From Aurantimicrobium minutum (GTDB lineage: Bacteria > Actinomycetota > Actinomycetes > Actinomycetales > Microbacteriaceae): a DNA stretch of 64,000 nt. The notes beneath the pieces were generated by a model that was given only the letters and a program-made list of their open reading frames with translations, made no database searches and was not told the origin of the DNA. Below are positions 5,151 to 20,861 of this stretch, piece after piece. The stretch covers positions 62,001-126,000 of the forward strand of contig NZ_JARXVT010000002.1 of assembly GCF_029892845.1 (NCBI RefSeq), written 5' to 3'. Each line of letters begins with the position of its first letter. The stretch's first letter is position 1. The translations under genes were made by a program, and so were the position numbers.

Positions 5151-5279
5151 AATATTTCCCCCATTTGTTTGACTAATACAAGACTACCCCCGCGCAATAA
5201 GGCTTGAAGAATCAAGAGAAACATTGAAACCCACAAGTAAAACTTTGTTGGGGTAGTTTCTATGCAAGGGGGGATTTAC

Positions 5280-7025
5280 TTGGTCACCATGATTCCACCT
5301 GGCGCGAAGCCAGGAACTAATAGGTCAGAGCGTGAAGTTTTCACAGCATTTGAGGGCATTCCCGACCGCCCTGATTGGATTGTGATTCATTCCCTCCAGT
5401 TGGCCCATAACTTGTTCTCCTTAGAAGGTGAAGCAGACTTCATTGTCTTCGTCCCGGGTAAAGGCATCGTGGCTATCGAGACTAAGAGCCCCAAGTATGT
5501 CGAATACACCGATGGCAATTGGTACCTAGATAAACTCCCCAACCCCACCAAGGATCCCCTCCAACAGGTTTCTCGAGCACGGTCCAACATCAGAGGTTTC
5601 CTCAAGCAGCACGATGAGAACATCAACGACATCCCCTTTGCCCGCATGCTGTGGTTCACATCCATCGCCCGCCACCAGTTCGTCAACAACTCTGTGGGAG
5701 ACATGCAGTTCTTTGAGTGGGAGCTCGGGCTCTCAGAAGACAAAGACAAGCCAGTTCAAGCCATAGAAAAGCTCTTAGAAAACCACATCAGTTTCTTCGC
5801 AGACAACGGCGAGGTCAATTACGACCCCGCAGCGTTCACGGCAGAACGTGCTGAAGCCATGGCTTCAGCACTACTGTCTAACTTTCGCGGTTATGAAAGC
5901 GCCGAAGAGCTAGCTAAGACCCGCTACAAAGTCGAGCAGAAGATGCTCGATGAGCAGCTGGCCATCATGGAACTCGTCGAATACAACAACCACATCTACT
6001 TTGATGGCGGGGCAGGCACAGGAAAGAGCTTCCTTCTCGCAGAGGCGGCCAGGAAATATGCCAAGCAAGGCAAGCGAACCCTCGTAACCTGCTGGAACTA
6101 CATGATGGCGGAAGAACTCGCTCTGACCCTCAACCGGCCCAACATCACCGTGAAGGACCTAAACACCCTCATGTTGGAGATGTGTGGGCTAGATACCAAC
6201 CCCGAAGGTGCTGACACGGATTGGTTTGAAGTGGAGCTCCCCCAGAAAGCACTTGAGGCACTGGAGAAGAATCCTGCACTAGGTGGCTATGAAGCGCTTT
6301 GCGTGGATGAGTTCCAAGACATAGCTGCCAACCTCAAACTCATTGAGTTAGTTCTTGCTTTGTGCAATGTGAAGAAGTTGGCAGACACCTCTATCGTCTG
6401 GGCTGGTGACCGCAATCAACAGATCATGCGCGAAGGTCAACAGACGATTGACCCTGCCACCCGCATGAAGCTCATCATGCCGGATACGGTTCATGTGAGA
6501 CTTCGCACCAACTGCAGAACAGTCCCCGAACTTGCCAAGATGATTCCTCGAATCATCAACATCGACACCGACATTGCCCGCCACCGAATCCCAGAAGGAT
6601 TCGAAGGCGGCCTGAACATTGTCACCAGCTCAGATGACAAACAAACTCAACACCTGGCAACGACAATCAGAAAACTCCTTGAGCGTTACAACACCAGGGA
6701 CATCGTGATTCTGAGCCCATTCGGAGAGACGAACTCCACCGTCGGCCAACTGCTTGAGCGTGGGGCTAGTAATGCCGACGAGCGCACACTCCTGTCACAG
6801 CTCGATATCGAGGGCACTGAAGGAAAAATTCGCTGGCGCTCGATTGCCAAGTTCAAGGGCTTGGAGTCACCTGTAGTTGTCATTACAGATGTGAATGAAA
6901 AAGCGAAAGTATTTGCCTCAAGCCTTCACAAACAACTCGATGAGTTGCTTTATGTGGGGATTACGAGAGCTAAGTATGAGTGCGTACTAATTGGAAATTC
7001 TGTAGACCCAGCCCGCTTGGATTAA
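5280..7025 (+). CDS. NERD-domain nuclease / SF1 helicase fusion
   Basis: About 581 residues. The N-terminal ~130 carry a NERD (nuclease-related) domain with an E-A-D-F-I-V...I-E-T-K pattern that matches the acidic and Lys active-site positions. The rest is a UvrD/Rep-type superfamily 1 helicase: Walker A G-G-A-G-T-G-K-S near 243-250, Walker B V-D-E-F-Q-D, a G-L-E-S-P-V-V-V-I motif and Y-V-G-I-T-R-A-K at the C-terminus. I choose a TTG start at 5280 because GGGGGG lies 6 nt upstream, the same layout as neighbouring genes. An ATG at 5262 is in frame but has no ribosome-binding site. A DNA repair or defence role is inferred. A histone-deacetylase-like gene lies downstream. Confidence 0.82.
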   Translation: MVTMIPPGAKPGTNRSEREVFTAFEGIPDRPDWIVIHSLQLAHNLFSLEGEADFIVFVPGKGIVAIETKSPKYVEYTDGNWYLDKLPNPTKDPLQQVSRARSNIRGFLKQHDENINDIPFARMLWFTSIARHQFVNNSVGDMQFFEWELGLSEDKDKPVQAIEKLLENHISFFADNGEVNYDPAAFTAERAEAMASALLSNFRGYESAEELAKTRYKVEQKMLDEQLAIMELVEYNNHIYFDGGAGTGKSFLLAEAARKYAKQGKRTLVTCWNYMMAEELALTLNRPNITVKDLNTLMLEMCGLDTNPEGADTDWFEVELPQKALEALEKNPALGGYEALCVDEFQDIAANLKLIELVLALCNVKKLADTSIVWAGDRNQQIMREGQQTIDPATRMKLIMPDTVHVRLRTNCRTVPELAKMIPRIINIDTDIARHRIPEGFEGGLNIVTSSDDKQTQHLATTIRKLLERYNTRDIVILSPFGETNSTVGQLLERGASNADERTLLSQLDIEGTEGKIRWRSIAKFKGLESPVVVITDVNEKAKVFASSLHKQLDELLYVGITRAKYECVLIGNSVDPARLD

Positions 7026-7244: not shown

Positions 7245-7352
7245 ATGCCCGGTTACGACGTGATGAACGGGCTGGCTTCAGCCGGCCCCATCACCTTCAC
7301 ATTAGGAGTTGGACTCCTCTACCTGATTGGCACATGGATCAATCGGGAATAA
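7245..7352 (+). CDS. possible small membrane peptide (35 aa)
   Basis: ATG at 7245, nine bases after the preceding small gene stops. It encodes 35 residues, the second half a single hydrophobic helix (I-T-F-T-L-G-V-G-L-L-Y-L-I-G) ending in W-I-N-R-E. Its 3' end overlaps the first codons of the deacetylase-like gene by 19 bp. No clear ribosome-binding site. Tentative. Confidence 0.3.
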   Translation: MPGYDVMNGLASAGPITFTLGVGLLYLIGTWINRE

Positions 7353-8431
7353 ACAACATCAGTATTCCGTTACAACCAGACCCTGTAACGTTCCGAAAGG
7401 TCACCGCTATTACTCACACTCCAGAATCTATTCAGCACAAGTCCAAAAGCTCTATTGCTCCACTTCACGTGGCCTACTCCCCCGACTACCTGCAATGGCA
7501 GCTCGGTTCTGGAGATGGTTCCCACCCCACCAACCCCATTCGTGCTGAATTGGCTACGGAGATGCTCGTTGAAGAGCTCGGTAATGCCGTCAGCGTGATT
7601 GATCCTGCAACCGCGGACATGAAGCATGTCCGCGCTGCCATTGAGTCAATCCATGACCTGGATTATGTCTCCGCCGTCATCGATGACGGCGTGAGCGATG
7701 AATGGATACGTAACAAAACCTGGATGGGTCAAACCGCAGCCACAATGTTTGCAGGAACCCAAATGTTGGTCGAGGGCATGATCAATGGTGCTTTCAATGT
7801 GGGCTTCAACCCCCAGGGCGCTAAGCACCATGCTCAATATGCCAACAGCTCTGGGTTCTGCGTGTTCAACGACATGGCATGGGCCGCAGTTGAGTTTCAC
7901 AACGCTGGCTTGAAGCCTCTCTACCTGGACTGGGATATTCATGCTGGCGATGGCGTTCAGCACCTCTTGGAAGGCACCAGCATTCCCACCTTAAGCATCC
8001 ACAACCACTCGATCTACCCTGGTGATCCAGAAACCATCAATCGTGAGTTGTCCCGTGCGGGTAAGAACCACTCTGCCCACGATGAAGAACGCCACATATA
8101 TAACTGGGGCATTAACAATGGTGCTGGGGACGAAGTACTGCTTGAGCTCCTCAATGACGAGATTGAAGAAGTAGTTAAGCGCTACAAGCCTGACGTGATC
8201 CTTCTTGCAGCAGGTGCAGATGGACACGGCGGGACAAGCAACCTCGGTTCATCCAACAACTACACCTATGAGGGCTTCACCCAGGCAGCCAAGAAGGTTG
8301 CTGAGTGGGCTAACGCCTACTCCCAAGGCCGAGTCCTTATCGGAGGAGCCGGTGGCTACCAGCCTCTCGACCACACGCCCAGAATCTGGGCAAATGTGGT
8401 CAAGACAATCTTTAGAGAAATAGGGCAGTGA
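7334..8431 (+). CDS. histone deacetylase / acetoin-utilisation family amidohydrolase
   Basis: 365 residues with the arginase/deacetylase fold motifs: H-H-A near 165-167, G-F-C-V-F-N-D at 174-180, D-W-D-I-H-A-G-D-G at 199-207 (zinc ligands Asp and His), A-A-G-A-D-G-H and a late G-G-A-G-G-Y (catalytic Tyr). Bacterial members remove acetyl or acyl groups from lysines or polyamines. The ATG at 7334 lacks a ribosome-binding site and overlaps a tiny ORF. Recognisable homology begins near residue 43, so a later start is possible. The gene ends next to the convergent restriction operon. Confidence 0.85.
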   Translation: MDQSGINNISIPLQPDPVTFRKVTAITHTPESIQHKSKSSIAPLHVAYSPDYLQWQLGSGDGSHPTNPIRAELATEMLVEELGNAVSVIDPATADMKHVRAAIESIHDLDYVSAVIDDGVSDEWIRNKTWMGQTAATMFAGTQMLVEGMINGAFNVGFNPQGAKHHAQYANSSGFCVFNDMAWAAVEFHNAGLKPLYLDWDIHAGDGVQHLLEGTSIPTLSIHNHSIYPGDPETINRELSRAGKNHSAHDEERHIYNWGINNGAGDEVLLELLNDEIEEVVKRYKPDVILLAAGADGHGGTSNLGSSNNYTYEGFTQAAKKVAEWANAYSQGRVLIGGAGGYQPLDHTPRIWANVVKTIFREIGQ

Positions 8432-10612
8432 CTACTCTTCAATTAGCTCGTCAGATTCTGAAGAACCAAACTCTGAAGCTACTTGAAGTGACTCAAAATA
8501 GGTCTCCCTAAGATCGATGAAAGATCGATCTCCCTCAGGATCTACTAGCCAGAACCACCAGCCCGCTTCTGAGGAAGACCCAGTCACTGCTTTTGCAGCG
8601 GCACTGAGAGTTTCAAATCTTTTGCCATCAACGAAAATTCCACCGTCCTCGCTGATCTGAGCCTCTCTGCCGAAATGGGAAGAGACACGAGCGCGGATAA
8701 CGGTGCCAGGCGAGATCAATCCAGCGTTAACAAGGTCAGCAACTTTGATTGAGTAGATTGTTTTTTCTCGCTTTCCAACAATCTCACCCTTATGGCCAGC
8801 TGGAACTGGCCAAATTCTGAGAATGTCGTTAGCGAGTGAAGTGGTTCTTTCATGAACATCGTTAGCCGTCCAATCAGAGACACCGTTGTTGATTACATCT
8901 TGAGTGGTCAACAATGTCGCAGAGGCAATAAAAGATTCTCGTTTTCCATTTTCACCAAGCCAAGGCCCATTAGAAACTTTGCTATTAAGTGTTTGTGTAA
9001 GCAGAACTAGATTTCCAAGGGTGTGAACAAGGTCATCGCGGTGTACCCCGTATTCATCAACTTCATCTTCATCCCAGTTCGCTCGCCAATCCTGAGGGAT
9101 TACGTGCTCAATGGAGCAGAAGCCTCTAATCATTGGCTGTTCGCTAGCTGGATTTTTTCCTGAAACCGTAAACCATCCCCGTCGTTCATCCTCAATTGCT
9201 TCAAGAATCATTCGCAGACGAGCTCGGGCCATTCTATTATATATGGGAGACGTAAGAAGCTCATTCTTTAATTCTTCATCGCCAGGCCAATAGGAATTGA
9301 CGCTCGTTTGACGGGCAAAGAAAGCTTCTGCGATAACACCAGCATCATCACGTGAATGAGATGCAAGCTCATTAAGTAAGTCAACAATGACTTTGTTGTA
9401 GTTATTGGTTGAAGCGCGGACGATTGTTCTTCTTACGAGCCAGCTTTCAACCGTAACTAAAACTTTGTCGAGTTGGACTTGAGGAATTTCTGATTTTTCA
9501 GGATCTACAAGCCATAACAAAATTGGTCGCACTACTTGCGAGTCCATAGAGAGCGTTCTATATACAAATAGTTCTAAACGAGAAAGCGATCCAGAAGGGT
9601 TTGATGCAGCATCAGAGAAGTTTTTATAAAGTTCAGATGACTTGTGAAGGGTTGGTAATAAGTCTTCAACCGGAAGTTCGCTGTCTGTTACAAACCTTTT
9701 GAACTGTCCAAATACTTCTCTAGCTGGAACATCTACCAAGGTTTGGGCAATTAACCATTGGGTTAGAAATAACGAACTTCGTGTGTAATTGATGCGACCG
9801 GCTGAAACTTCTTTTTCCCAAAAAGGAGTTTCAAACTGTTGCCAGTATTGGTGGTAGGCAGCTTCCGCACCTTTTGGTGTTGTTTCTAGACGCTGAAATA
9901 CAAAATTCTTGATGAGGTCTGCTGCCGTAAGGGGGGTTCCTCGCGCATTTAGGGTTTCGAAAATCTCCTGAGCGTCTTCATCAGCGAGCAGATCGATAAC
10001 TACGATTTGCAAAAGTGTCCTGATGGTCAAAACCAGAGCATTTGCTCGAACTTCTAAAGTGTCGTCCGTTCCGAGCCAATCATTGATTTGTCCGTAGAAG
10101 AATGAATGAGCTTCCACCATTCTGCTATTGACATTGCTCAATGAGGAATAATCAATTGGCAGCTCAGCAGACATCACTTCATTGAATGCAGCTCTGTCAC
10201 GATTAGTCGGCCAAACCTTGAATTTTTCTTCGGGTTCTTGGGTGAAATATTCAGCGTTTTCCACCAAGGCTTCCAACTGCTTTGCAATGGCTTCAAAACC
10301 TTTAACTTGAACGCTGGCATGGGCGGCATCGATAAGCAGTTGGAGGGTAGTTAACCGCTGTTGACCATCAATGACAGTTCGAACAGCCAAGTTGCCAATT
10401 ACTGAAGGCTGCTGTTGAAGGACAACTGCACCCAGGAAGTGTGGAACGGGTTGCTGACCGAGCACAACCTTGTCAGCTACCCGCTTTACGTCTTCCCACA
10501 AAGGTGCCCACTGACCCTCTTTCGACCACACATAGGGCCGCTGAAAAAGGGGCACCAACAGCCTTTGTGGGGTGAAAAAGATGTCATGAGGAGTTCTTAC
10601 ATCAGTAAGCAT
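8432..10612 (-). CDS. GmrSD-like nuclease (DUF262 + DUF1524) with C-terminal RAMA-like domain
   Basis: About 726 residues. The N-terminal DUF262 domain has the D-G-Q-Q-R-L-T-T motif (82-89), which in GmrS-like proteins couples nucleotide binding to restriction. A DUF1524 HNH-like nuclease region follows, with S-I-E-H-V-I-P-Q and H-T-L-G-N-L-V-L-L motifs. The last ~90 residues (L-V-N-A-G-L-I, D-G-G-I-F-V-D-G, L-S-A-A-A-K-A-V-T-G, W-W-F-W) resemble the RAMA domain found in enzymes that read or act beside adenine methylation. The ATG at 10612 is preferred over the TTG at 10618. It is the last gene of the methylase/helicase operon, 44 bp behind the helicase. Modification-dependent restriction is the likely role. 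Confidence 0.82.
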   Translation of the reverse strand: MLTDVRTPHDIFFTPQRLLVPLFQRPYVWSKEGQWAPLWEDVKRVADKVVLGQQPVPHFLGAVVLQQQPSVIGNLAVRTVIDGQQRLTTLQLLIDAAHASVQVKGFEAIAKQLEALVENAEYFTQEPEEKFKVWPTNRDRAAFNEVMSAELPIDYSSLSNVNSRMVEAHSFFYGQINDWLGTDDTLEVRANALVLTIRTLLQIVVIDLLADEDAQEIFETLNARGTPLTAADLIKNFVFQRLETTPKGAEAAYHQYWQQFETPFWEKEVSAGRINYTRSSLFLTQWLIAQTLVDVPAREVFGQFKRFVTDSELPVEDLLPTLHKSSELYKNFSDAASNPSGSLSRLELFVYRTLSMDSQVVRPILLWLVDPEKSEIPQVQLDKVLVTVESWLVRRTIVRASTNNYNKVIVDLLNELASHSRDDAGVIAEAFFARQTSVNSYWPGDEELKNELLTSPIYNRMARARLRMILEAIEDERRGWFTVSGKNPASEQPMIRGFCSIEHVIPQDWRANWDEDEVDEYGVHRDDLVHTLGNLVLLTQTLNSKVSNGPWLGENGKRESFIASATLLTTQDVINNGVSDWTANDVHERTTSLANDILRIWPVPAGHKGEIVGKREKTIYSIKVADLVNAGLISPGTVIRARVSSHFGREAQISEDGGIFVDGKRFETLSAAAKAVTGSSSEAGWWFWLVDPEGDRSFIDLRETYFESLQVASEFGSSESDELIEE

Positions 10613-10656
10613 AAGCAAAACCTAATTTCAGTCGAATCAGCTCTCATACAAGCTGA

Positions 10657-13203
10657 CTAATTTGCCTCTACTGCAATGACAGTGTCATAGAGACCGTATT
10701 GACGCAGTCCGTCATGGGATTCGATACCCGTATATGAAAGAGAAGCATCTTCATAACGGCGGAAAGCGAACACAGCATTGTTCATGTGTGCTGAGTTAAA
10801 CACTCCTAATGTCACAAGAAGATTGAAATCTTCGACAGTGAGACCTGTGACTGTTTTGAATAGATCAGGCTCCAACTTAGTAATGACGTCTTGAAGAGTA
10901 TTTTCACGAAAATCAGTCAAATACATAAATGCAGGGATTCGTGTAGCAAATTTGATCAATTTTTCTTGAATCAATTTACGGTTTGACTTATATTCCTTCT
11001 CTTCTGCAGAGAGTTCCTTCTTTTCCTTATCTGTAAGGGAATCGCCCTCTTTGGCTTTAGTGGCCTTCACCTTTTCACTCTGGTTGATCACGGTTTCGAT
11101 GATGTTGTCACCGAGTGATCTGAAGCCCTCAATGTTTTGAATTGCTTCAAGTGCCTTTGCATTAGACAAGATCTTCTTCAAAGTTGCGTTGTCGACATTG
11201 ACCAACAAAGCAGACTCCCATTTACGGGCGAGCAAAGTGGCAGAAGTTCCAGCCATAGCCATATCTAAAACACCACCTGCGTCGATCTGGGTCATATGTG
11301 ACCCGTCGTAAGCAAGAACGGGAAGGAATTCAATCAATTCCTTGACTGAGACTTCTGGATTTGGTTCTTGTGGTGCCAGTCCAATTCCGTAATCAGAGAT
11401 CTGTCGAAGTGCACGAGTCGGTGCGAAGTCGAAAACAAAACAAACAGGTTTTTTAATTTCTTCAAGGTTGGGATCATCACCGTTGGGGTTATTTATTGAC
11501 CAAGAGGACTGAACCCGGAAAGCAGCTTGGAAATATGATTCTGGAGACTTTAAGTTTCTCAGCATCAGGATTGAAGACCACTGCGGAACTGTAACTCCGG
11601 TTGTCAACTTTCCACATGACAAAGTAATAGTCTTCGAGTCGTTGCCACTTCCGATGGCTTTACGCACAGGAGGAAGCGCTTCAAGGCCAATACCTGCTTT
11701 GGTTCCTGAAACATTCAGGACGGTATAACCATGCCAAAACACATTGTGATTTTCTGAAAGTAGATTCGCCATTGCATCGCACGCTGCAACATCTGGCATA
11801 AACCAGAATGAATGTTGCAGGTATGGAAGCAACCTGACATCAGAGTATGGGAATGGTGGTTTCTTACTTCCTTGCTGGAGGTTCTCTGCAATGTGTGGGG
11901 TATAGGAACCTCGAATAATTTCAAGCCACTTTTGAACTTCGGTCTTATATTTGAACTCTGCTTGGTCACCCTTTCCGCTCGCCTTGAAGAATTCGTTGAG
12001 ATCAAACTCATCAAACTCCCCCTGGCTAGCGATGGAGAGTACTTCATCAGGCATTTGATAGGTGAACAAGCGCATCTCAGGAAGTGATGCGTAAGGGTTG
12101 AGCTTGTCGGGGTGTTTCTCCGAAAACTTTTTCTTTGCTTTTTGTTCGTCTGTGTAAGTCCAGTTAAAGATTTGCTCTTCTATGAATTCGCCAGAGGAAA
12201 GAGCCCTGAAGGGAGTTCCTGAAAGATAGAGATAGGCACGCGTAGTGATGGGGAGGAAGTCTGCTTCTTTTCCACCCAGTTCTTCGAGTTCTTCCTCAAA
12301 AGTTTCTTGGTCATCGCCATACTCTTGCTTAAGCTCTGCCTTCACAACTGTTGCTTCTTCACCTTCGAAGAGCTCCTTGGCGCTGTCCCTCCAAGCACCA
12401 AAGTGATATTCATCGAATACAACTAGGTCCCACTTTGTTTCGTGGATCCAGTTGTTTTTTGGCTTCATCAGGCCAGTTTCTTTATCTTTTCCAAGTAGGT
12501 CTTGAAAAGATCCAAAGTAAACGACGGGGCGTTGTGGGTCTGCTTGTGTTGGGTCCTGCCCTACATTTTTTGAGAAGTACTGCCAGTCGTCAAAATCTTT
12601 GTGATTTTCTAGATCCGCTTGCCACGCATCTTCAACTGCAGGCTTGAATGTGAGAACAAGAATTTTCCTTGCACCGATCTTTTCGGCAAGTTTGTAAGTT
12701 GTGAATGTCTTTCCAAAACGCATTTTTGCGTTCCACAAAAATCTAGGGACTGCATTCATGTTTTCAGCCCACACTGAATTGAAATACGCGTGGGTTGCAT
12801 CGACAGCTTGTGCTTGCTCTTCTCGCATGTCAAAAGTGAGGTGATGGGTGCCAGTGAGCTTGACACCTTCTCGGAGCTCTGTAATCGCAGTCTTGACGTC
12901 TTCAACAGAACAGCGCATCCACTCCAGCTGAACGTTTTCAAAGCCTTTTCTCTTCAGATGTGCACGAACATCATGATCTGTGAAAAGGGAGCCATCTCGA
13001 CGCTCTCCCAGCTCATCTATTTCAATCGTGTAGTTCTGGATTGCTGCAGTCTTGGTCTGCTGTTCTACACGAGTCTTTACGTCTTGAGTGGTTTGACCAA
13101 CTTTGATCTGGCCCTTATGGTGCTCGTCTTGGATTGTGTAACCGTAGATACGAAGGCGAGATTCGACTTTCTCGGGGAAAAGTTCAAGCTCAGTTTTACT
13201 CAT
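10657..13203 (-). CDS. GIY-YIG-like nuclease / DEAD-like helicase restriction protein
   Basis: 848 residues. The N-terminus looks like a GIY-YIG nuclease: Y-G-Y-T-I at 20-24, I-K-V-G-Q-T at 33-38 and Arg45. An SF2 helicase core follows, with Walker A-like M-R-F-G-K-T at 161-166, D-E-Y-H box at 264-267 and L-S-G-T-P-F motif III. A Lys/Glu-rich coiled segment lies near 700-750. The start overlaps the methylase stop by 8 bp, so the helicase and methylase genes are coupled. The protein probably translocates on and cuts DNA lacking the partner methylation. Confidence 0.82.
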   Translation of the reverse strand: MSKTELELFPEKVESRLRIYGYTIQDEHHKGQIKVGQTTQDVKTRVEQQTKTAAIQNYTIEIDELGERRDGSLFTDHDVRAHLKRKGFENVQLEWMRCSVEDVKTAITELREGVKLTGTHHLTFDMREEQAQAVDATHAYFNSVWAENMNAVPRFLWNAKMRFGKTFTTYKLAEKIGARKILVLTFKPAVEDAWQADLENHKDFDDWQYFSKNVGQDPTQADPQRPVVYFGSFQDLLGKDKETGLMKPKNNWIHETKWDLVVFDEYHFGAWRDSAKELFEGEEATVVKAELKQEYGDDQETFEEELEELGGKEADFLPITTRAYLYLSGTPFRALSSGEFIEEQIFNWTYTDEQKAKKKFSEKHPDKLNPYASLPEMRLFTYQMPDEVLSIASQGEFDEFDLNEFFKASGKGDQAEFKYKTEVQKWLEIIRGSYTPHIAENLQQGSKKPPFPYSDVRLLPYLQHSFWFMPDVAACDAMANLLSENHNVFWHGYTVLNVSGTKAGIGLEALPPVRKAIGSGNDSKTITLSCGKLTTGVTVPQWSSILMLRNLKSPESYFQAAFRVQSSWSINNPNGDDPNLEEIKKPVCFVFDFAPTRALRQISDYGIGLAPQEPNPEVSVKELIEFLPVLAYDGSHMTQIDAGGVLDMAMAGTSATLLARKWESALLVNVDNATLKKILSNAKALEAIQNIEGFRSLGDNIIETVINQSEKVKATKAKEGDSLTDKEKKELSAEEKEYKSNRKLIQEKLIKFATRIPAFMYLTDFRENTLQDVITKLEPDLFKTVTGLTVEDFNLLVTLGVFNSAHMNNAVFAFRRYEDASLSYTGIESHDGLRQYGLYDTVIAVEAN

Positions 13204-14845
13204 TGTCCAACTCCATCGGGCGAATGAGTGCCTCTATAAACTCGATCTCATCCTTTGATAAATCGAATTTTTTATAAAGAATATCATCAGTCCATTTAAT
13301 CTCGAGTGGGACATCAGGCACAAAACTAAAGCGGTTACTGTATATGTCTTGAGTATTTTTGCGAAGAGAAACTAAAAATCTAACAAACCTTGTCCGTAAA
13401 TAATTATCATAATTTTTTGCGCTTAAGACGTCTTCAAATTGACCAGCTATAAGGTATGTTTCCGTGCATGCGGAGTAATCAGGTGCAACGATAGGTGAGT
13501 TGTATATCTGGTGAGGGGGTGAACCAGCCATTCCATATGCGCGCCCAATATAAACGTTGTGTCTTTGAACCCAAGCTGAATTTTTTGGAATTGCAGCCTT
13601 AGAGATAAATGAACTACCTCCATTCTCAAAGAGAATTATTGGGTCAGGAATTCCTTTCGGATTTGAACTACCTTTGAAGTTTGTTCGAAGACCAAATGGT
13701 TGAATGGGTGAAAAACGGGTGCTTAAGTTACCCCATCCAAGTTCTTCTGACTTTTGTAGAACTTTTTCAACGATTGGGATTGCTTCATTTCTTCTAACGA
13801 GGATGTCATACGCATTCAAAAAACGAGACTGAATTGGCGCAGTTAATTCTTTACCGATAATCGTTCCGACATCACATTTGCCTTTCCACGAGGCGTCCCA
13901 AAGGAAATATGAAACCCCACCTTCGATACGCGTGCCTGGAAAGACTTCAGAAGGGTCAGGGAAATCAATCAAAACTCGTAACCGGCGATCAGACAACATT
14001 TGAGCCCGAAAATCGTCAAGTCCTCTGCCGCCTGCAAACCAGCGGGACGGAGTAACCATGGTTATGAAATGAGGATCAAGTGACTTTGCGGCATCCACGA
14101 ATTTTTGATAGATAGGCATAGCAAAACCTCCAACGGAATCGCCGCCGCTTTGCCCAAGTTGATAGGGAGGGTTGCCAATAACAACGTCAAATTTCACTTC
14201 AGCTCCGAATTCTTTCTTCAGTAAGTCGTTAGGATTTTCAGTATGAAGAAATGGGTATGCGTAAGATTCCATTGACTCACGGTCATAATCACGCTGATTC
14301 GCTGCGCAATATTTACATTTACCGTCAATAGTGGTTGTTTCTTCAACCCCATCTGCATTGACAACAATGATCTTGTCTTTACCGCCAACCCACGTGTGTT
14401 CTGTTCTCTCAAACCAGATATTTCCATCTGGATTATCAAAGGCAGTAGCGATGGAATGTTCACCATTAGCCCATTTAGAGCAATACACACTTCTTCTAGC
14501 TAGGAGCGCTGTCAACTGAGTAATTCCTATGCCAAAAACCTGTTTGGTCAGAATGTGATTTACACGTTCTTGAAGGTCAGGAATCTCTTTGGCAAGACCG
14601 TGTGTGAGTCGCTCAGTAATTTCTCGGAGAAATACACCTGACTTAGTAAAGGGGTCCAGAAAGGTGACAGAACTGTCTTCCCAGATGTTTGCTCCGCCAT
14701 TTGAGTTAGCCCAAGTTTCCTCAAGCGTGTCCAGCATTCGGTTGGCGAACTCTGGTGGCGTGAATACTTCATCGTTAGAGAGATTCGCAATGCTGGTTAG
14801 GACGTCTGGGTTTCCCCGACGGAACTTAAATTCTGCTTGAGTCAA
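13196..14845 (-). CDS. Eco57I-type N6-adenine DNA methyltransferase
   Basis: 549 residues. The catalytic motif N-P-P-Y lies at 225-228 within V-V-I-G-N-P-P-Y-Q-L-G. The SAM-binding motif I is unusual (D-P-F-T-K-S-G at 64-70). A C-x2-C pair near 177-180 may be part of a zinc knuckle. The C-terminal half should hold target recognition. The TTG start overlaps the preceding methylase-like gene (TTGA, 4 bp) and has GGGG upstream. With the small methylase subunit it probably protects host DNA. The strand is AT-richer than the core genes, which suggests transfer. Confidence 0.85.
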   Translation of the reverse strand: MTQAEFKFRRGNPDVLTSIANLSNDEVFTPPEFANRMLDTLEETWANSNGGANIWEDSSVTFLDPFTKSGVFLREITERLTHGLAKEIPDLQERVNHILTKQVFGIGITQLTALLARRSVYCSKWANGEHSIATAFDNPDGNIWFERTEHTWVGGKDKIIVVNADGVEETTTIDGKCKYCAANQRDYDRESMESYAYPFLHTENPNDLLKKEFGAEVKFDVVIGNPPYQLGQSGGDSVGGFAMPIYQKFVDAAKSLDPHFITMVTPSRWFAGGRGLDDFRAQMLSDRRLRVLIDFPDPSEVFPGTRIEGGVSYFLWDASWKGKCDVGTIIGKELTAPIQSRFLNAYDILVRRNEAIPIVEKVLQKSEELGWGNLSTRFSPIQPFGLRTNFKGSSNPKGIPDPIILFENGGSSFISKAAIPKNSAWVQRHNVYIGRAYGMAGSPPHQIYNSPIVAPDYSACTETYLIAGQFEDVLSAKNYDNYLRTRFVRFLVSLRKNTQDIYSNRFSFVPDVPLEIKWTDDILYKKFDLSKDEIEFIEALIRPMELDNE

Positions 14846-15459
14846 TTCCCCAACTCCTCAATGCTCATGGGTGGATAAGTCTGGATTGGTGTGAAGATCT
14901 CGTGCTCTTCAAAGTTTTCAAAAAGCGAACCTTCAACAGAAGACCGTTGAGTCAAACTGTCGAATCGGAAATCACGACGTTGAAACTTCCCCTTGGTTAA
15001 GTAAGCCCATTCGGGAAAGACCAGGGGCTCTCCGGCTGGATGAGTCATGCTGAGGGCATCCCCTTGCAAGATATTTACTTCAAGCACATTTGACGCTGCT
15101 TTATACAAGTCAGACTCTTTGGCGATTTTCAGCGTTGAGGAAAAAACCTCTAGCAGATTTTCGCGGCACTCGATTGTGTTGTCTTCTAACAGTTCGATTC
15201 CATAAATGCACATCAGCCCAAGGAGTGCGTGGTGGCGCTTTTCGAAATCGTTCTTTTCGTATTTCGTCTCAACCGTGCTGAGTTTGCGTTTAAGAACTGC
15301 AACTAAAAAGTTCCCTGAGCCGCATGCAGGCTCTAGAAAGCGAGAATCAATGCGCTCGGACTCGTGCTTAACGAGGTCGAGCATGTCTTCGACCATCCAT
15401 TGAGGCGTGAAGACTTCACCATGGTCTGCAACACGTTGCTTAGATTTTACTAAGTCCAT
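14842..15459 (-). CDS. small methylase-like subunit without NPPY motif
   Basis: About 205 residues from the ATG at 15459, which has GGAGG and GAGGGG just upstream. The frame runs to 15531, but sequence typical of HsdM-like proteins starts here (K-S-K-Q-R-V-A-D-H-G-E-V-F-T-P). It has a classic SAM-binding motif F-L-E-P-A-C-G-S-G-N-F near 41-51 and G-D-A-L, but no N-P-P-Y. The expected place carries F-P-E-W-A-Y-L instead. It is probably a partner of the downstream NPPY methylase. First gene of the four-gene operon. Confidence 0.78.
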   Translation of the reverse strand: MDLVKSKQRVADHGEVFTPQWMVEDMLDLVKHESERIDSRFLEPACGSGNFLVAVLKRKLSTVETKYEKNDFEKRHHALLGLMCIYGIELLEDNTIECRENLLEVFSSTLKIAKESDLYKAASNVLEVNILQGDALSMTHPAGEPLVFPEWAYLTKGKFQRRDFRFDSLTQRSSVEGSLFENFEEHEIFTPIQTYPPMSIEELGN

Positions 15460-15651
15460 ATTCCCCTCGCCTCCAGGAATAAGGTTATCGGCTACTACGG
15501 ACATCCCCAGTGGGATTTCATGTCTGGACATTATTCGAATGAATAATTGAAGTTCAAAACCAAGCTCAATCTAGCCAGGTCACACCTCACTGCTGAGATA
15601 AGTTGAAGATGTAATAGCGGCGCGCGTGAGGGGCTTTCCCAAGCATTGAGC

Positions 15652-15688
15652 TTGAGAGGATGCCCGCCAAACAGCTTTAATGGGGGAA
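15652..15688 (+). promoter_or_regulatory. promoter and ribosome-binding site of the sigma-4-like gene
   Basis: TTGAGA (15652-15657) lies 18 bp before TTTAAT (15676-15681). The ribosome-binding element GGGGGAA (15682-15688) follows directly, and the GTG start at 15695 is 6 nt later. The mRNA leader would be very short. The divergent methylase operon starts about 200 bp to the left. Confidence 0.5.
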
Positions 15689-15694
15689 TCTACG

Positions 15695-17635
15695 GTGGAC
15701 AATAAAGAAACACCATCATGGGAAGGGTTTTTCCCTTGGTTATCTGAATTACTTCCCACTCAGGATTCACCTGAGTCGCAGTTAGCCAACTATTCAAAAT
15801 GGCTCGAACCTATTGATCAGACTCCTCAGAACATTGATGCTCGCGTTGAACAACTCTGCGGACTGATCGAAGTACGATTCGGAAACCGTTCACTTGAACA
15901 AATCTTTCCGATGCTTGACCATTGGTCGAATATCTCTGTCGTAACAGTTACAGGATTTGGCGAGGACATTACCTTCAACGAAACGAACTATCCCTTTGGG
16001 ATGATCGCCCACACGAATTTTGAAGACTTATATTCAATCGACAATCTTGCAATCGCGAACTCACGATCACTCCTATTCGATTTGATCCAGAAGTGTCTCA
16101 AACAAATCGGGATTGAAAGTAACAATAGAGAAGCGCATAAGCAACATTCTTCTAAATTGACTATTCCTTTTTCGGAAGCAATATATGAGCTTTTAGGTTC
16201 TTTAGACGACCGAGAAAAGCTCATCCTGGTTGATCGGATTTCAAGCAGTAAGCCAAGAACTCTTGATGATGTAGGGGCTGTATTCGACATCACGCGCGAA
16301 AGAGTGCGTCAAATTGAAAAGAAGTTGTTCCAAAAAATCAAAGACTGGGTTAAGAATTCTGAAGATATGAAGATTTTCTTGCCCCAGGTCAGGTTATTCA
16401 TTGGAGAAATTTCAGCGAGTAGCAACCTGATTGAAGCTTTTCCTGGCCTAGAAGTAAGGCTAGAACCATTCAATTTAAGAGGTTGGGGACTTCTCCCGGC
16501 TCTAATCAACGGTTTAGAAATTGAAGATAATTGGATTTTTGGATCCGGAGCAGAGAAAGTACAGCAGGGTTTTGATGAAATATTCGAATCTAATTCAGAA
16601 GGAATTGGATTCATAAAACTTGCTGACTTTGCCACTATTTATAGTTCATGGGGATCAAGCAGTTCTAAAGAACTACTTCAGTGGGCAATCACAAGGAAAT
16701 ACAAAACCTTTGAGGGCCTGCTGCTTTCTCCAAAGATTCAAAGCCAGACTGAATTAGCAATCGCATACCTGCAAAACAAGAATTCGCCTGCCCCAATCGA
16801 AGTTCTTTGCGGAGCAATTACACCAGGGAAGCCAAAAAGAAATCTCGCAACTCGTCTCGCAGAAGACAGTCGGATTGTCCGCGTAGGTCCAGAATCTTGG
16901 GGGCTCCCTGATTGGGAGCTCGATGTATATGACGGTATCCAAAATGTAATAAAGCGGCGTGTGGAGGCAGAAGGAACAGTTTCACTTTTGCAGTTGTTAG
17001 AGGAACTCCCAAAGCAATACGGGGTAGCTGAAAATAGCATTCGCACATACGCCGCTACGTTCCCCTTTCAACTTCATGGGGATGAAGTCAGCTTGGCTGA
17101 AGAGCGCAAAGGTGTTAACCGAAACGTAAACCGTGTTCGCAACCTCTATTTTGTTGACGAGAAGTTGGCATTTCGAATCTGTGTAAATAGTGAACATCTA
17201 CGCGGTAGTGGGATAATGCTCTCTGGCGCATTTGCTCAGGCAATTGGTGTTCAACCCGGGGAAAGTAGACAGTGGGACGTTGAAGGTCACACAGCTCAAT
17301 TTGCTGTCAATTGGGGTGGCGGCCAGCCACGTGCATCAAGTATCCGAGTACTCCTTAACGACATCTACGCGAAGACTGGCGATCAAATTGTCTTAATTTT
17401 TGATCGCGATACCGTCTCAATATCTAAAGTCCTTGTCGACGATTCATCACTTGAAAAAAAAATTGCTGCTCTCTGCTTACTCCCAGAAGGCAGTGAAGTA
17501 TCTCGAAAGAGTATTGCTCCTGCAATTGGTCTTCCAACGAACAGCGTATGGAATCAAATCATGGAACTGATGCGTCTTAGAAAAGATACAGAACTCCTTG
17601 AACTGCTTGAGAAGTACATAACGACACTTACTTAA
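15695..17635 (+). CDS. large DNA-binding protein with sigma-70 region 4-like and HARE-HTH-like domains
   Basis: About 646 residues. Residues ~170-217 match sigma-70 region 4 (L-D-D-R-E-K-L-I-L...T-L-D-D-V-G...I-T-R-E-R-V-R-Q-I-E). Around 390-415 there is an R-L-A-E-D-S-R-I-V-R-V-G-P-E-S-W-G-L motif like HARE-HTH/RNA polymerase delta winged helices. No sigma region 2 is evident. It stands divergent to the methylase operon and upstream of a second GmrSD-like gene. A regulator or target-recognition role for the island is inferred. The GTG start is set by GGGGGAA 6 nt upstream. Confidence 0.65.
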   Translation: MDNKETPSWEGFFPWLSELLPTQDSPESQLANYSKWLEPIDQTPQNIDARVEQLCGLIEVRFGNRSLEQIFPMLDHWSNISVVTVTGFGEDITFNETNYPFGMIAHTNFEDLYSIDNLAIANSRSLLFDLIQKCLKQIGIESNNREAHKQHSSKLTIPFSEAIYELLGSLDDREKLILVDRISSSKPRTLDDVGAVFDITRERVRQIEKKLFQKIKDWVKNSEDMKIFLPQVRLFIGEISASSNLIEAFPGLEVRLEPFNLRGWGLLPALINGLEIEDNWIFGSGAEKVQQGFDEIFESNSEGIGFIKLADFATIYSSWGSSSSKELLQWAITRKYKTFEGLLLSPKIQSQTELAIAYLQNKNSPAPIEVLCGAITPGKPKRNLATRLAEDSRIVRVGPESWGLPDWELDVYDGIQNVIKRRVEAEGTVSLLQLLEELPKQYGVAENSIRTYAATFPFQLHGDEVSLAEERKGVNRNVNRVRNLYFVDEKLAFRICVNSEHLRGSGIMLSGAFAQAIGVQPGESRQWDVEGHTAQFAVNWGGGQPRASSIRVLLNDIYAKTGDQIVLIFDRDTVSISKVLVDDSSLEKKIAALCLLPEGSEVSRKSIAPAIGLPTNSVWNQIMELMRLRKDTELLELLEKYITTLT

Positions 17636-17722
17636 GGGCATCTCTAGTTTTAGAAGTAACTTGATCACGTTTTCAAACTGTGATCAACTTAGCTACAGCC
17701 AACAGGTTTTCTAGGGGGAAAC

Positions 17723-19549
17723 ATGCAAATTGACGCCAGTGAAAAATCACTTCACAACATACTGAGTGGAAATGTCACTCTGACAATCCCCCCATTTCAG
17801 CGTAATTACGCTTGGAAGACCGACCAGATTGATGCATATCTCGAGGATGTATTCAACCTTGCTTTGGATCCAGGTAGCGAGCACTTTTTCGGCCCTGTAG
17901 TTCTTCTTGAAGACAAGAAAGACCTCAGCATTATTGATGGCCAGCAGCGTCTGACTACCACCATTATTTTGTTGTGCATTATTCGAGACCAGCTTGAATC
18001 CTTTACAAACTCGAACTTTGTAAAAGAAGGACACAATTTTCCTCTGGACATGCTGTTGACCCAGATGTTGAAGCATGACGACTTCATCCATGACAGTTAC
18101 ATTGCCAATTATCAGATCCAGGATGTTTTCAAGACTCACATCTTGGCGCCAATGAACTCAGTCAATCGGAAAGTATTTAATCCTGGCGGCAAGGGCCTGA
18201 CAACTGATGAAAAGCGCGCAACAACCGAACTTCGGTCTGCATATTCGCGAATTCAAAAAAGGCTAAATGACTGGCTCAAGCCCAACGCTGGGGATGAAGA
18301 TGCTATGAAGAGCCAGCTTTTCTCTTTGATCAATGCCTTGAGAAATGGTTTCCGACTTCTTGAAATCCGAATGTACACAGCAGATGATGCCTACATTTTG
18401 TTTGAAACACTCAACGAACGCGGTCTTCGACTCACCCCAAGCGATTTGCTGAAAAACTTTACTCTCAGAAATGTTGCAGCCAAAGATTCAGACAAAATCA
18501 CTAAGGTTCTCAAGCAATGGGATGACTCCATTTCAACCCTCGGCGACTACCCCTTTACAAAGTTTTTACGTCACTTCTTGCTCTCTTCGCAGGTATCCAA
18601 AGTTCAAGCGCAAAAGATCTTCAAGCTCTTTAGCGACCGGGTTGCTAAATACGGTGATGGTGGCGCTATGCGTAACCTCAACGAAATTGAAAGCGCTGCA
18701 AACGTCTACGCAAAGCTTTTGGGAGATTCCTCAAACTTCGGTGATTCGGCAATTGATGACGCTAATGCTCGTCTGAATCTCTTCTCAGAGACCCACAGAG
18801 TTTTCCTCTTACGCGTCATGCTCGGAAGCTTCACTAACAAAGCGAAGCTCAAAGCGACATTAGCCACAGAAATCATGGCATTTAGGTGGATCCTCACAGG
18901 TCGTAACGCTCAAGAACTTGAAACCCTGTACCAGAAGGCAAGCGACCTGCTTTTCACTGACAATCAGGGAACAATGGCAGCCGAAGATTCAGCCATTGAT
19001 GCAGCCATCAGCTTCCTCATGTCCTCATTGCCCAGCGATGATGCTGTTCGTTCCTACATGATTGAAAACCCAGCACGACGTGATCTTGTCTTCTATGCAC
19101 TCAAGCGTGCAAACTTCGCAATCCAGCCCGTAGGGTTCAACTACCAACAGTCCAAACTGCATGTTGAACATCTAGCACCCCAGAACCCAGCGATTGGTTC
19201 CAGCTGGTTCACCAAGGTTGCTGAAAGAACTCCTAGCGACCCCAACGCACCCACATATGACGACTTCGTACAGAAGTGGGGAAACCTCAGCATCCTGGAA
19301 TTCGAAGTAAATATCTCTATCAGCAATGCCGATTGGACAGACAAGGTTAACGGTAAAAATGACGGCCTTCTGAATGGGCTTAAGAACTCACTTATTCAAA
19401 TGAATAAGGATCTCTCAGTTCTTCCCGACTGGACAGCAGATCTTATTGATAAGCGGACTGCTTGGTTGGCTGATGCAATGGTTGCATTGACTCGTCCTGA
19501 AAATATCGAAGGAACTCCCGGATCAGTCAGTTCCTATACCGGCAATTAA
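17723..19549 (+). CDS. second GmrSD-like protein (DUF262 + DUF1524)
   Basis: 608 residues with the DUF262 motif D-G-Q-Q-R-L-T-T at 72-79 and P-P-F-Q-R-N-Y-A-W near 23-31. The C-terminal DUF1524 HNH-like region shows L-H-V-E-H-L-A-P-Q-N and K-W-G-N-L-S-I-L. Unlike the copy at 8432-10612 it has no RAMA-like tail. AGGGGGAAAC precedes the ATG. GmrSD-type enzymes restrict modified (for example glucosylated) phage DNA. It is probably co-transcribed with the regulator-like gene 87 bp upstream. Confidence 0.82.
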   Translation: MQIDASEKSLHNILSGNVTLTIPPFQRNYAWKTDQIDAYLEDVFNLALDPGSEHFFGPVVLLEDKKDLSIIDGQQRLTTTIILLCIIRDQLESFTNSNFVKEGHNFPLDMLLTQMLKHDDFIHDSYIANYQIQDVFKTHILAPMNSVNRKVFNPGGKGLTTDEKRATTELRSAYSRIQKRLNDWLKPNAGDEDAMKSQLFSLINALRNGFRLLEIRMYTADDAYILFETLNERGLRLTPSDLLKNFTLRNVAAKDSDKITKVLKQWDDSISTLGDYPFTKFLRHFLLSSQVSKVQAQKIFKLFSDRVAKYGDGGAMRNLNEIESAANVYAKLLGDSSNFGDSAIDDANARLNLFSETHRVFLLRVMLGSFTNKAKLKATLATEIMAFRWILTGRNAQELETLYQKASDLLFTDNQGTMAAEDSAIDAAISFLMSSLPSDDAVRSYMIENPARRDLVFYALKRANFAIQPVGFNYQQSKLHVEHLAPQNPAIGSSWFTKVAERTPSDPNAPTYDDFVQKWGNLSILEFEVNISISNADWTDKVNGKNDGLLNGLKNSLIQMNKDLSVLPDWTADLIDKRTAWLADAMVALTRPENIEGTPGSVSSYTGN

Positions 19550-19558
19550 TTGATCAGT

Positions 19559-20758
19559 TCACTCTGAATCAAGAGATAAATCTGCTTCCTCAGCAAATTT
19601 CGCTGCCATCGTGGGGTTTCCTCGAGTGAGCTTCTTGATTGTGATGTCCTGAGCCTTGTTGTTGGCTAGGCGAAGGTTGTTCTCTGAACCCTTGAGTTCT
19701 TCCTTGACCTTCTCAAGTGCCTTGATGGACTTATCTATCTCTTCGATGGCTTTGCCAAACTTGCCAGCGGCAAGTTCGTAGTTCCGGAAGAAGCCCGACT
19801 TGAATGCTTCAAGGTCGTCCTCGAAGGTCGTGATGTCAATGTTCTGTGCTTTGATGCGGGCAAGCTCTGTGCGGTCTTCCACGGACTTCATTGCTGCATT
19901 GCGTAGCAATGTAATGATCGGGATAAAGAACTGTGGTCGGACCACATACATCTTGGGATAGCGGTGAGAAACATCCACAATGCCAGTGTTGTAGAGCTCA
20001 CTGTCTGCTTCGAGCATGGAAACCATGACGGCATATTCACAACCCTTGAGGTTGCGGTCCTTATCTAGTTCCTTGAAGAAGTCTTCGTTCTTCTTCTTGG
20101 TGGCCGTGGTGTCAGCTTCATTCTTCATCTCGAACATGATGGACGTGACTTCCACGTTCTCATCGGTGAGTTCTCGGAATATGAAGTCACCCTTGCTGCC
20201 TTCTTTAACTTCGTTGTCTTTCTCGAAGTAGGCATTGGGGAAAGCGCTGGGGCGAATGGTATTGAAGGCAACTTCACAGTGTTGTTCGAGAGTTTCACCG
20301 AGCATCTTGGTGGAGAGCTGCGTCTTGAGATCTCTCAGACGCTCAATTTGATCTTCACGATCCTTGAGTTGGGTTTCATATTTGTCTTTAAGAGCGGTCT
20401 CAACCATTTGCTTTTCCAGCTCGGCGCGCTCAACCGCGTGCTTGAAGTCGTCACGCTCCTTCTCGACCTTGGAAAGGGCTTGAGTGACAGCCAACTTCTT
20501 TTCTGTCTCTGCAGAACCGAGCTCTGCGGCAAGGCGTTGGATCTCGTTCTCTTTTTCGGCGACCTTAGCTTTGAGCTTTTCAGCTACTTTGGCTTCCGCG
20601 AGCGCGATCTCTGTTTCTTTGGCTTCTGCTGCAAGCTGGAGGCGCTTTTCTATCTCTTCCTCAAACTCGTGAGTTCTAACTTGGGTGAGAATGTCTGCAT
20701 AGTTCGCCTCGTCGATGGTGAACGCAGTCTTGCAGTGTGGACACACGATTTCATGCAT
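19559..20758 (-). CDS. DUF2130-family protein (coiled coil, nuclease-like C-terminal domain)
   Basis: About 399 residues from the ATG at 20758 (GGGAGG ~12 nt upstream). It begins with a zinc-ribbon-like C-P-H-C, then a long Lys/Glu/Ala-rich coiled coil (~25-155). The DUF2130 domain follows with G-D-F-I-F and F-E-M-K-N-E motifs that resemble a PD-(D/E)XK active site. Proteins of this family are often found with restriction or repair genes. The biochemical role is unknown. It converges on the second GmrSD-like gene with 9 bp between them. Confidence 0.75.
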
Positions 20759-20861
20759 GTGAATCATTTCCTCCCAATAAATCACGCAAGCTCACAATGT
20801 GGTGTGAGTTCCCCTTTGAACCTTCCACCAGCTTAGGGTTCAGAGCATGATGTGTATGAAA

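What the first reader, a model, noticed from the sequence alone, without database searches (positions are those of the whole stretch)
8432..20758. Composite restriction island combining two GmrSD-like enzymes, a methylase operon and modification-reader domains
One operon encodes a small methylase, an Eco57I-type methylase, a GIY-YIG/helicase protein and a GmrSD-like nuclease with a RAMA-like tail, all coupled by overlaps or short gaps. Divergent to it are a sigma-4/HARE-like protein and a second GmrSD-like gene, followed by a DUF2130 protein. RAMA and HARE-HTH domains are both linked to modified DNA. This suggests one system that methylates self DNA, cuts unmethylated DNA, and also reads or attacks foreign modifications. 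I do not know this exact set as a named system.
Basis: partly seen in the sequence, partly recalled or inferred. Interest (0 to 1): 0.75.

Follow-up and report, generated by a model that had tools for sequence, protein, structure and literature searches.

The report
DrdVI-type split-methylase restriction island
The heart of this region is a bacterial DNA-defence system of an already named family (DrdVI), in which the DNA-methylating enzyme is divided between two proteins in an unusual, well-conserved way; the neighbouring genes are separate or optional companions rather than parts of one new system.

Summary
The genes are real, but they are not one system. The conserved unit is three genes, M1-M2-R (15531 down to 10657): two methylase polypeptides and a GIY-YIG nuclease fused to an SF2 translocase. 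This is a DrdVI-family split Type IIG restriction system: 62, 49 and 70% identity to the prototype, whose M1+M2 methylate GCAGCC. In 57 loci with enough upstream sequence, M1 was found in 56 and M2 in 57. GmrSD-RAMA is a recurrent optional partner, enriched with the core but also found without it, and once placed between M1 and M2. The sigma-4, second GmrSD and DUF2130 genes are not conserved with the core. What I did not find in print is how the methylase is divided. In the close family M1 keeps the SAM-binding motifs and lacks NPPY (62/62 and 37/37). M2 keeps NPPY (69/70 and 40/40) but has lysine for a motif I glycine and no motif II acid (66/66 and 40/40). Distant members deviate in detail. 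I infer one active site built from two proteins; this needs a bench test.

The parts
14842..15531 (-). M1: 229-aa SAM-binding half-methyltransferase (M1.DrdVI homolog, 62% identity); motif I EPACGSGNF at 15333-15307, motif II acid E113, motif III D158; no NPPY
13196..14845 (-). M2: 549-aa gamma-class adenine methyltransferase fold plus target-recognition region (M2.DrdVI homolog, 49%); motif I DPFTKSGVF with Lys for Gly at 14656-14630, NPPY at 14173-14162
10657..13203 (-). R: 848-aa GIY-YIG nuclease (about 13146-12877) fused to an SF2 helicase/translocase (Walker A, DEYH, SGTPF); DrdVI homolog, 70%
8432..10618 (-). Accessory: GmrSD-type nuclease (DUF262 with DGQQR, DUF1524 with EHxxP) with C-terminal RAMA domain (about 8770-8486), 38 nt downstream of R
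15680..17635 (+). Sigma70 region-4 protein, 651 aa, divergent from M1 with 148 bp between; not conserved with the core
17723..19549 (+). Second GmrSD-type protein, 608 aa (DGQQR, EHxxP, no RAMA match); not conserved with the core
19559..20785 (-). DUF2130 protein; 75% homolog in a sister genome without R

Best explanation
The island carries a DrdVI-family (REBASE Type IIG-like) restriction-modification operon M1-M2-R with a GmrSD-RAMA gene attached as an optional extra. M1 and M2 together form one m6A methyltransferase: M2 reads the asymmetric site through its TRD and supplies the catalytic NPPY face, M1 supplies the SAM-binding face. R carries a GIY-YIG nuclease on an ATP-driven SF2 translocase, reads the same site through M1-M2, moves along unmethylated DNA and cuts it. 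Shown by others: M1 and M2 of DrdVI cloned together give one m6A motif in E. coli. Shown here: homology, gene order, coupling and the partition of motifs. Inferred: that the two polypeptides share one active site, that M2's lysine blocks its own SAM pocket, that R translocates before cutting, and that GmrSD-RAMA adds attack on modified DNA. The sigma-4/GmrSD2/DUF2130 genes are separate island passengers.
For: Identity to M1, M2 and R of pDrdVI is 62, 49 and 70% in the same gene order. M1-2.DrdVI: GCAGCC, m6A, IIG, cloned in E. coli ER2796 (whole text read). [quoted passage not shown] A Bibersteinia ORF resembles M1 at its N- and M2 at its C-terminus, though in a fragmented system the authors call inactive. 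Motif partition in genome loci: M1 GxG 62/62 and NPPY 0/62; M2 Lys for Gly 66/66 and NPPY 69/70; motif II acid 62/62 in M1 and 0/66 in M2. In viral contigs: M1 GxG and acid 37/37, no NPPY; M2 Lys 40/40, acid 0/40, NPPY 40/40. The M1 model matches the SAM half of CamA (5-160), MmeI and BrxX; M2 matches whole gamma MTases with TRD. In 5 of 8 distant systems translated, the NPPY half is a separate protein starting 8-10 residues before NPPY, about where M1 stops, and the degenerate half is fused to R. R keeps AKMR[FY]GKT, DEYH and SGTPF in 79 of 79 scorable copies.
Against: No activity, motif or phage data exist for this genome. The M2 model aligns to CamA from end to end, its N-terminal half included, so M1 would have to displace that half or act elsewhere. 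No complex model was run. Foldseek's own best E-value for the M1 model is only 0.012. Published clones carried M1 and M2 together, so neither has been tested alone in what I read. The lysine is not universal: of the 8 distant systems it is present in 4, replaced by STAG in 3 and was not located in 1; M1 has CGEAP instead of GxG in 2 of the 7 with an M1, and in L017.
Confidence: 0.6

Rival explanations
1. M1 is not part of the catalytic site but a SAM-sensing regulator. M2 is complete enough to methylate with an altered SAM pocket, and M1-SAM licenses R, as SAM is an allosteric effector in Type I enzymes (recalled).
For: M2 models as a complete gamma MTase including its N-terminal half; the Lys is conserved in the close family, which suggests a function rather than decay.
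Against: M2 lacks both the motif I Gly and the motif II acid in every scorable close-family copy (66 and 40), and both are in M1. In five distant systems the NPPY half is a separate protein from the degenerate half.
Confidence: 0.26
2. One reading: all seven genes form one system that methylates self DNA and also reads or attacks foreign modifications.
For: All lie in one low-GC stretch; R is absent from the 7 other genus genomes; GmrSD-RAMA co-occurs with the core and sits between M1 and M2 in G416.
Against: sigma-4, GmrSD2 and DUF2130 relatives occur without the core, and the core occurs without them.
Confidence: 0.06
3. The M1/M2 split and lysine are decay: the operon is a degenerate, inactive remnant and only the GmrSD genes still work.
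For: No activity data for this genome; a Bibersteinia relative is reported as fragmented and inactive.
Against: All frames here are open. The pattern is the same in loci titled from many phyla and in the active prototype DrdVI. Overlapping gene starts are kept.
Confidence: 0.06

Closest known systems
DrdVI (Deinococcus wulumuqiensis NEB 479, plasmid pDrdVI), REBASE Type IIG
   Same: Same three genes in the same order; 62/49/70% identity; same M1 GxG, M2 KSG and NPPY pattern; 8-nt M2/R overlap.
   Different: M2, which holds the target-recognition region, is only 49% identical, so the recognition site may differ; M1 and M2 do not overlap there (8-nt gap); no GmrSD gene is annotated in the 9.4-kb stretch of pDrdVI that I read.
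[quoted passage not shown]
   Same: Named in the same family; two methylase genes giving one m6A motif (passages).
   Different: Archaeal; sequence not compared here.
Type ISP enzymes LlaGI / LlaBIII
   Same: Nuclease + SF2 translocase + gamma MTase + TRD; the M2 model aligns to LlaGI 866-1566, Z 19.6.
   Different: Single polypeptide; nuclease of another family (Mrr-type, recalled) rather than GIY-YIG; no separate M1.
OspHL35III Type IIG-like systems (Blow et al. 2016, PMC4752239)
   Same: MTase-TRD, translocase and GIY-YIG nuclease (figure legend).
   Different: GIY-YIG and translocase are separate proteins; MmeI-like MTase; no M1 half is mentioned.
GmrSD Type IV enzymes (GmrSD, BrxU, SspE)
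   Same: DUF262 + DUF1524 with DGQQR and EHxxP in the translations (EHxxP as).
   Different: GmrSD1 adds a RAMA tail; two relatives also have a sub-threshold MGMT-like DNA-binding match.

Membership tests
DrdVI-type split IIG system | M1 homolog, small, before M2 | tested here: met
   62% over 206 aa to M1.DrdVI
DrdVI-type split IIG system | M2 with NPPY and TRD | tested here: met
   49% to M2.DrdVI; NPPY present; model aligns along the whole of CamA and to LlaGI 866-1566
DrdVI-type split IIG system | R = GIY-YIG REase fused to translocase | tested here: met
   Pfam T5orf172 + ResIII; 70% to DrdVI; description
DrdVI-type split IIG system | m6A at one short asymmetric motif made by M1+M2 | not testable with these tools
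   Known for DrdVI and MaeIV; no reads for this genome
DrdVI-type split IIG system | DNA cutting by R | not testable with these tools
   -
Type ISP (LlaGI) | Nuclease, translocase, MTase and TRD in one polypeptide | tested here: not met
   Three separate genes; R-M2 fusions exist in distant members such as Enterococcus, Lactococcus and Pediococcus plasmids, still with a separate M1
GmrSD | DUF262 and DUF1524 domains | tested here: met
   PF03235 and PF07510 above cut-off in both proteins
RAMA | PF18755 above cut-off | tested here: met
   47.4 vs 35.2 bits in GmrSD1; no match in GmrSD2 at E<=1
HARE-HTH | PF05066 in the sigma-4 protein | tested here: inconclusive
   No match in it at E<=10; sub-threshold in 4 of 8 homologs
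MZA (MzaA) | NF041931 above cut-off 800 bits | tested here: not met
   42.9 bits, sigma region only
MADS (MAD2) | NF047738 above cut-off 720 bits | tested here: not met
   27.9 bits for M1

The most novel reading that the evidence does not exclude
DrdVI-type enzymes are a natural DNA adenine methyltransferase whose SAM-binding half and catalytic half are donated by two proteins in trans, while the catalytic protein still carries a dead, in most copies lysine-plugged, copy of the SAM half. That dead half has become a docking or switch element that couples methylation state to the GIY-YIG translocase, and GmrSD-RAMA is a second effector that reads the system's own mark.
Probability: 0.33. Interest if true: 0.65.

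Novelty: new member of a known kind. Interest (0 to 1): 0.42.

Why it matters
It turns an apparently new composite island into a known family plus optional extras. If the two proteins really build one active site, this is a natural split methyltransferase, useful as a conditional methylation tool and a clean question in enzyme evolution.

Tried and rejected
One composite seven-gene system: rejected by co-occurrence. A conserved sigma-4 + GmrSD pair: of 24 sigma-4 neighbourhoods fetched (L180-L199, L221-L224), a GmrSD gene is directly next to sigma-4 in 1 (L183, G259); a DGQQR-bearing ORF lies somewhere in the stretch in 4 (L181, L183, L196, L221). My ORF caller missed the sigma-4 gene itself in at least four (L186-L188, L222), so this is a lower bound. 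GmrSD-RAMA always paired with some methylase: in six core-free genomes (L166-L171) no ORF with an NPPY-type motif was flagged in the 20 kb; in a seventh (L177, G203) one lies about 8 kb away (motif search only). M1 as a frameshift fragment of M2: rejected, since it is a separate gene with its own motifs. M1 in L264: only a paralogous hit inside M2, so this row was dropped from the M1 counts. L029 has no M1 and only the C-terminal part of M2. No solved-structure relative by sequence for the M2 and R profiles at E<=0.01; the M1 profile matches only a Type I M subunit, 3ufb.

Papers: searches for prior descriptions were made; two returned nothing. I read PMC6430315 whole, section 17 of PMC4996451 (passages) and passages of PMC12839542, PMC12707154, PMC11037411, PMC5737866, PMC10113651 and PMC4752239; the other listed papers I saw only as listings. 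Nothing I read describes the partition of SAM-binding and catalytic motifs between M1 and M2. REBASE and most subscription papers were not searchable.

An automatic ORF caller (first start codon, greedy by length) was used for neighbourhoods; in high-GC loci it over-extends genes and can hide small ones, so presence was recounted by tblastn where it mattered.
Full report
What is there. Seven open genes lie between 8432 and 20785. Four are on the minus strand in the order M1 (15531-14842), M2 (14845-13196), R (13203-10657) and GmrSD1-RAMA (10618-8432). Two are divergent from them: a sigma-70 region-4 protein (15680-17635) and GmrSD2 (17723-19549). A DUF2130 gene (20785-19559) follows on the minus strand. 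The stretch is low in GC (0.42-0.48 from 9 to 20 kb against 0.55-0.60 in most 1-kb steps right of 30 kb). R has no match in the seven other genomes of the genus, so this looks like an island.

What the conserved unit is. With R as query, own genome included, 4 of 60 relatives and 9 of 394 class genomes have a match. The best 80, all 63% identical or more in the best segment, carry titles from Actinomycetota, Proteobacteria, Bacteroidetes, Verrucomicrobia, Chloroflexi, Acidobacteria, Nitrospira, Planctomycetota, Armatimonadota, Gemmatimonadetes, Cyanobacteria and others. Many are metagenome bins, so single titles may be wrong. High identity across phyla indicates horizontal spread (inference). 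Of the 80, 57 have at least 3.5 kb upstream of R: M2 is found in 57 and M1 in 56; the exception, L029, also has only part of M2. The 4-nt and 8-nt overlaps of this window are the commonest spacing (46 and 43 of 62). In 13 of 62 a spacing exceeds 200 bp; in two of these (L033, L104) R or M2 itself is in two pieces. Nine proteins inserted between core genes in seven other loci match KilA-N, DUF1016/YhcG (two), RhuM, AlbA, HigB, DUF4411, Fic and Peptidase_M78. Relatives of R were also found in 79 plasmid records and 5 phage records.

Its name. The same trio lies on plasmid pDrdVI of Deinococcus wulumuqiensis NEB 479, with identities 62% (M1), 49% (M2) and 70% (R). The methylome paper (PMC6430315, whole text read) lists M1-2.DrdVI: GCAGCC, 6mA, IIG, cloned and expressed in E. 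coli ER2796. [quoted passage not shown] So the core is a new member of a known family.

How the methylase is divided. In genome loci M1 keeps the GxG of motif I in 62 of 62 and lacks any NPPY-like motif in 62 of 62. M2 has lysine in place of the first glycine in 66 of 66 with that region present (8 rows lacking it set aside) and NPPY in 69 of 70, the other being NPPC (4 lacking the region set aside). The motif II acid is Glu in 62 of 62 M1 and Gly/Ala in 66 of 66 M2. In viral contigs, another collection that may overlap in content, M1 has GxG and the acid in 37 of 37 and no NPPY; M2 has Lys 40 of 40, acid 0 of 40, NPPY 40 of 40 (L264 dropped from M1; of 43 loci 38 gave an M1 hit and 40 an M2 hit). 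The AlphaFold model of M1 (pLDDT 83.6) matches the SAM-binding half of gamma MTases: CamA 5-160 (Z 10.9, rmsd 3.2, 135 aligned), BrxX 237-495, MmeI 288-469; Foldseek alone gave at best E 0.012. After the third strand it has a beta hairpin that carries the conserved QRRDF, in the place where motif IV would be expected. The model of M2 (pLDDT 80.3) matches whole gamma MTases with their TRD: CamA 9-577 (Z 21.7, rmsd 4.7, 403 aligned) and LlaGI 866-1566 (Z 19.6). Its residues 120-200, between the degenerate half and the NPPY half, are of low confidence, which would suit a flexible linker (inference).

Distant members. Eight distant systems were translated. In Enterococcus, Lactococcus and Pediococcus plasmids R and M2 are one protein, and a separate M1 precedes it. 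M1 was found in 7 of the 8; the Treponema stretch begins at the record end. The lysine is present in 4 (Enterococcus, Pediococcus, Treponema, Lactiplantibacillus), replaced by STAG in 3 (Arthrobacter, G173, G202), and not located in Lactococcus. M1 has GxG in 5 of 7 and CGEAP in 2 (Pediococcus, Lactiplantibacillus); a further fused system, L017, has CGEAP in M1 and SKSG in the large protein. This supports, but does not prove, that M1 and the NPPY half belong together.

GmrSD1-RAMA. Relatives aligned through the RAMA region occur in 11 of 394 class genomes, own included (my cut; in G203 the two parts lie on two contigs and were counted as one). Four of the 11 also hold the core, which 9 of 394 hold (p=3.9e-5; without the own genome 3, with 10 and 8 of 393, p=6e-4; not corrected for phylogeny). 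Positions vary: downstream in the operon here, between M1 and M2 in G416, convergent beside R in G045, the same locus as L089, 31 kb away in G386. Of the 80 genome loci, 6 have any GmrSD1 relative, and 3 of these align through RAMA, one of them in fragments. In one distant core (L016) a sub-threshold RAMA match (25.7 bits, cut-off 35.2) sits on R itself. A loose functional partner is the best reading. Whether RAMA reads m6A is unsettled in print (PMC11037411, passages).

The right-hand genes. Long sigma-4 relatives occur in 30 of 394 class genomes (my cut), 2 with the core. GmrSD2 relatives at E<=1e-20 occur in 3 and sigma-4 relatives at E<=1e-10 in 5 of 326 other order genomes, none in common. 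One genome (G259) does have a GmrSD gene directly after sigma-4, closer to GmrSD1 than to GmrSD2. No locus of the 80 has GmrSD2 as best match, and one has a weak (25%) DUF2130 match. A 75% DUF2130 homolog sits in a sister genome without R. They are best seen as separate.

Mechanism. M1+M2 mark one adenine in a short asymmetric site (known for DrdVI and MaeIV). By analogy to Type ISP enzymes, R is expected to translocate from unmodified sites and cut on collision; this is inference from the SF2 and GIY-YIG motifs and general knowledge. The shared M1/M2 active site is my inference and the main thing to test.

Noticed in passing
window 5262-7025 (+): NERD nuclease + UvrD-like helicase, best PADLOC match the NERD-helicase of a DRT system; another defence-like gene left of the island core.
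   Followed up: no
window 7334-8431 (+): Histone-deacetylase-fold protein convergent with GmrSD1, the two genes directly abutting (8431/8432); no match in the 7 other genus genomes at E<=0.001.
   Followed up: partly
L201 (Corynebacterium crudilactis pCRULAC2): A DrdVI-type operon in which mobile genes and aminoglycoside resistance genes lie between M2 and R.
   Followed up: no
L015 11319-14336 and L024 1964-4414: GmrSD-RAMA proteins of relatives have a further MGMT-type DNA-binding match after RAMA, below the Pfam cut-off.
   Followed up: no
L016 6849-7805: A DUF4268 gene overlaps the end of a distant DrdVI-type R gene, in the place where this window has GmrSD-RAMA.
   Followed up: no
L034, L035, L037, L042, L063, L065, L067: Genes inserted between M1, M2 and R match KilA-N, DUF1016/YhcG, RhuM, AlbA, HigB, DUF4411, Fic and Peptidase_M78.
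   Followed up: partly
L181 8892-11204: A sigma-4 relative with an RNA polymerase alpha C-terminal domain match, E 8.7e-7.
   Followed up: no
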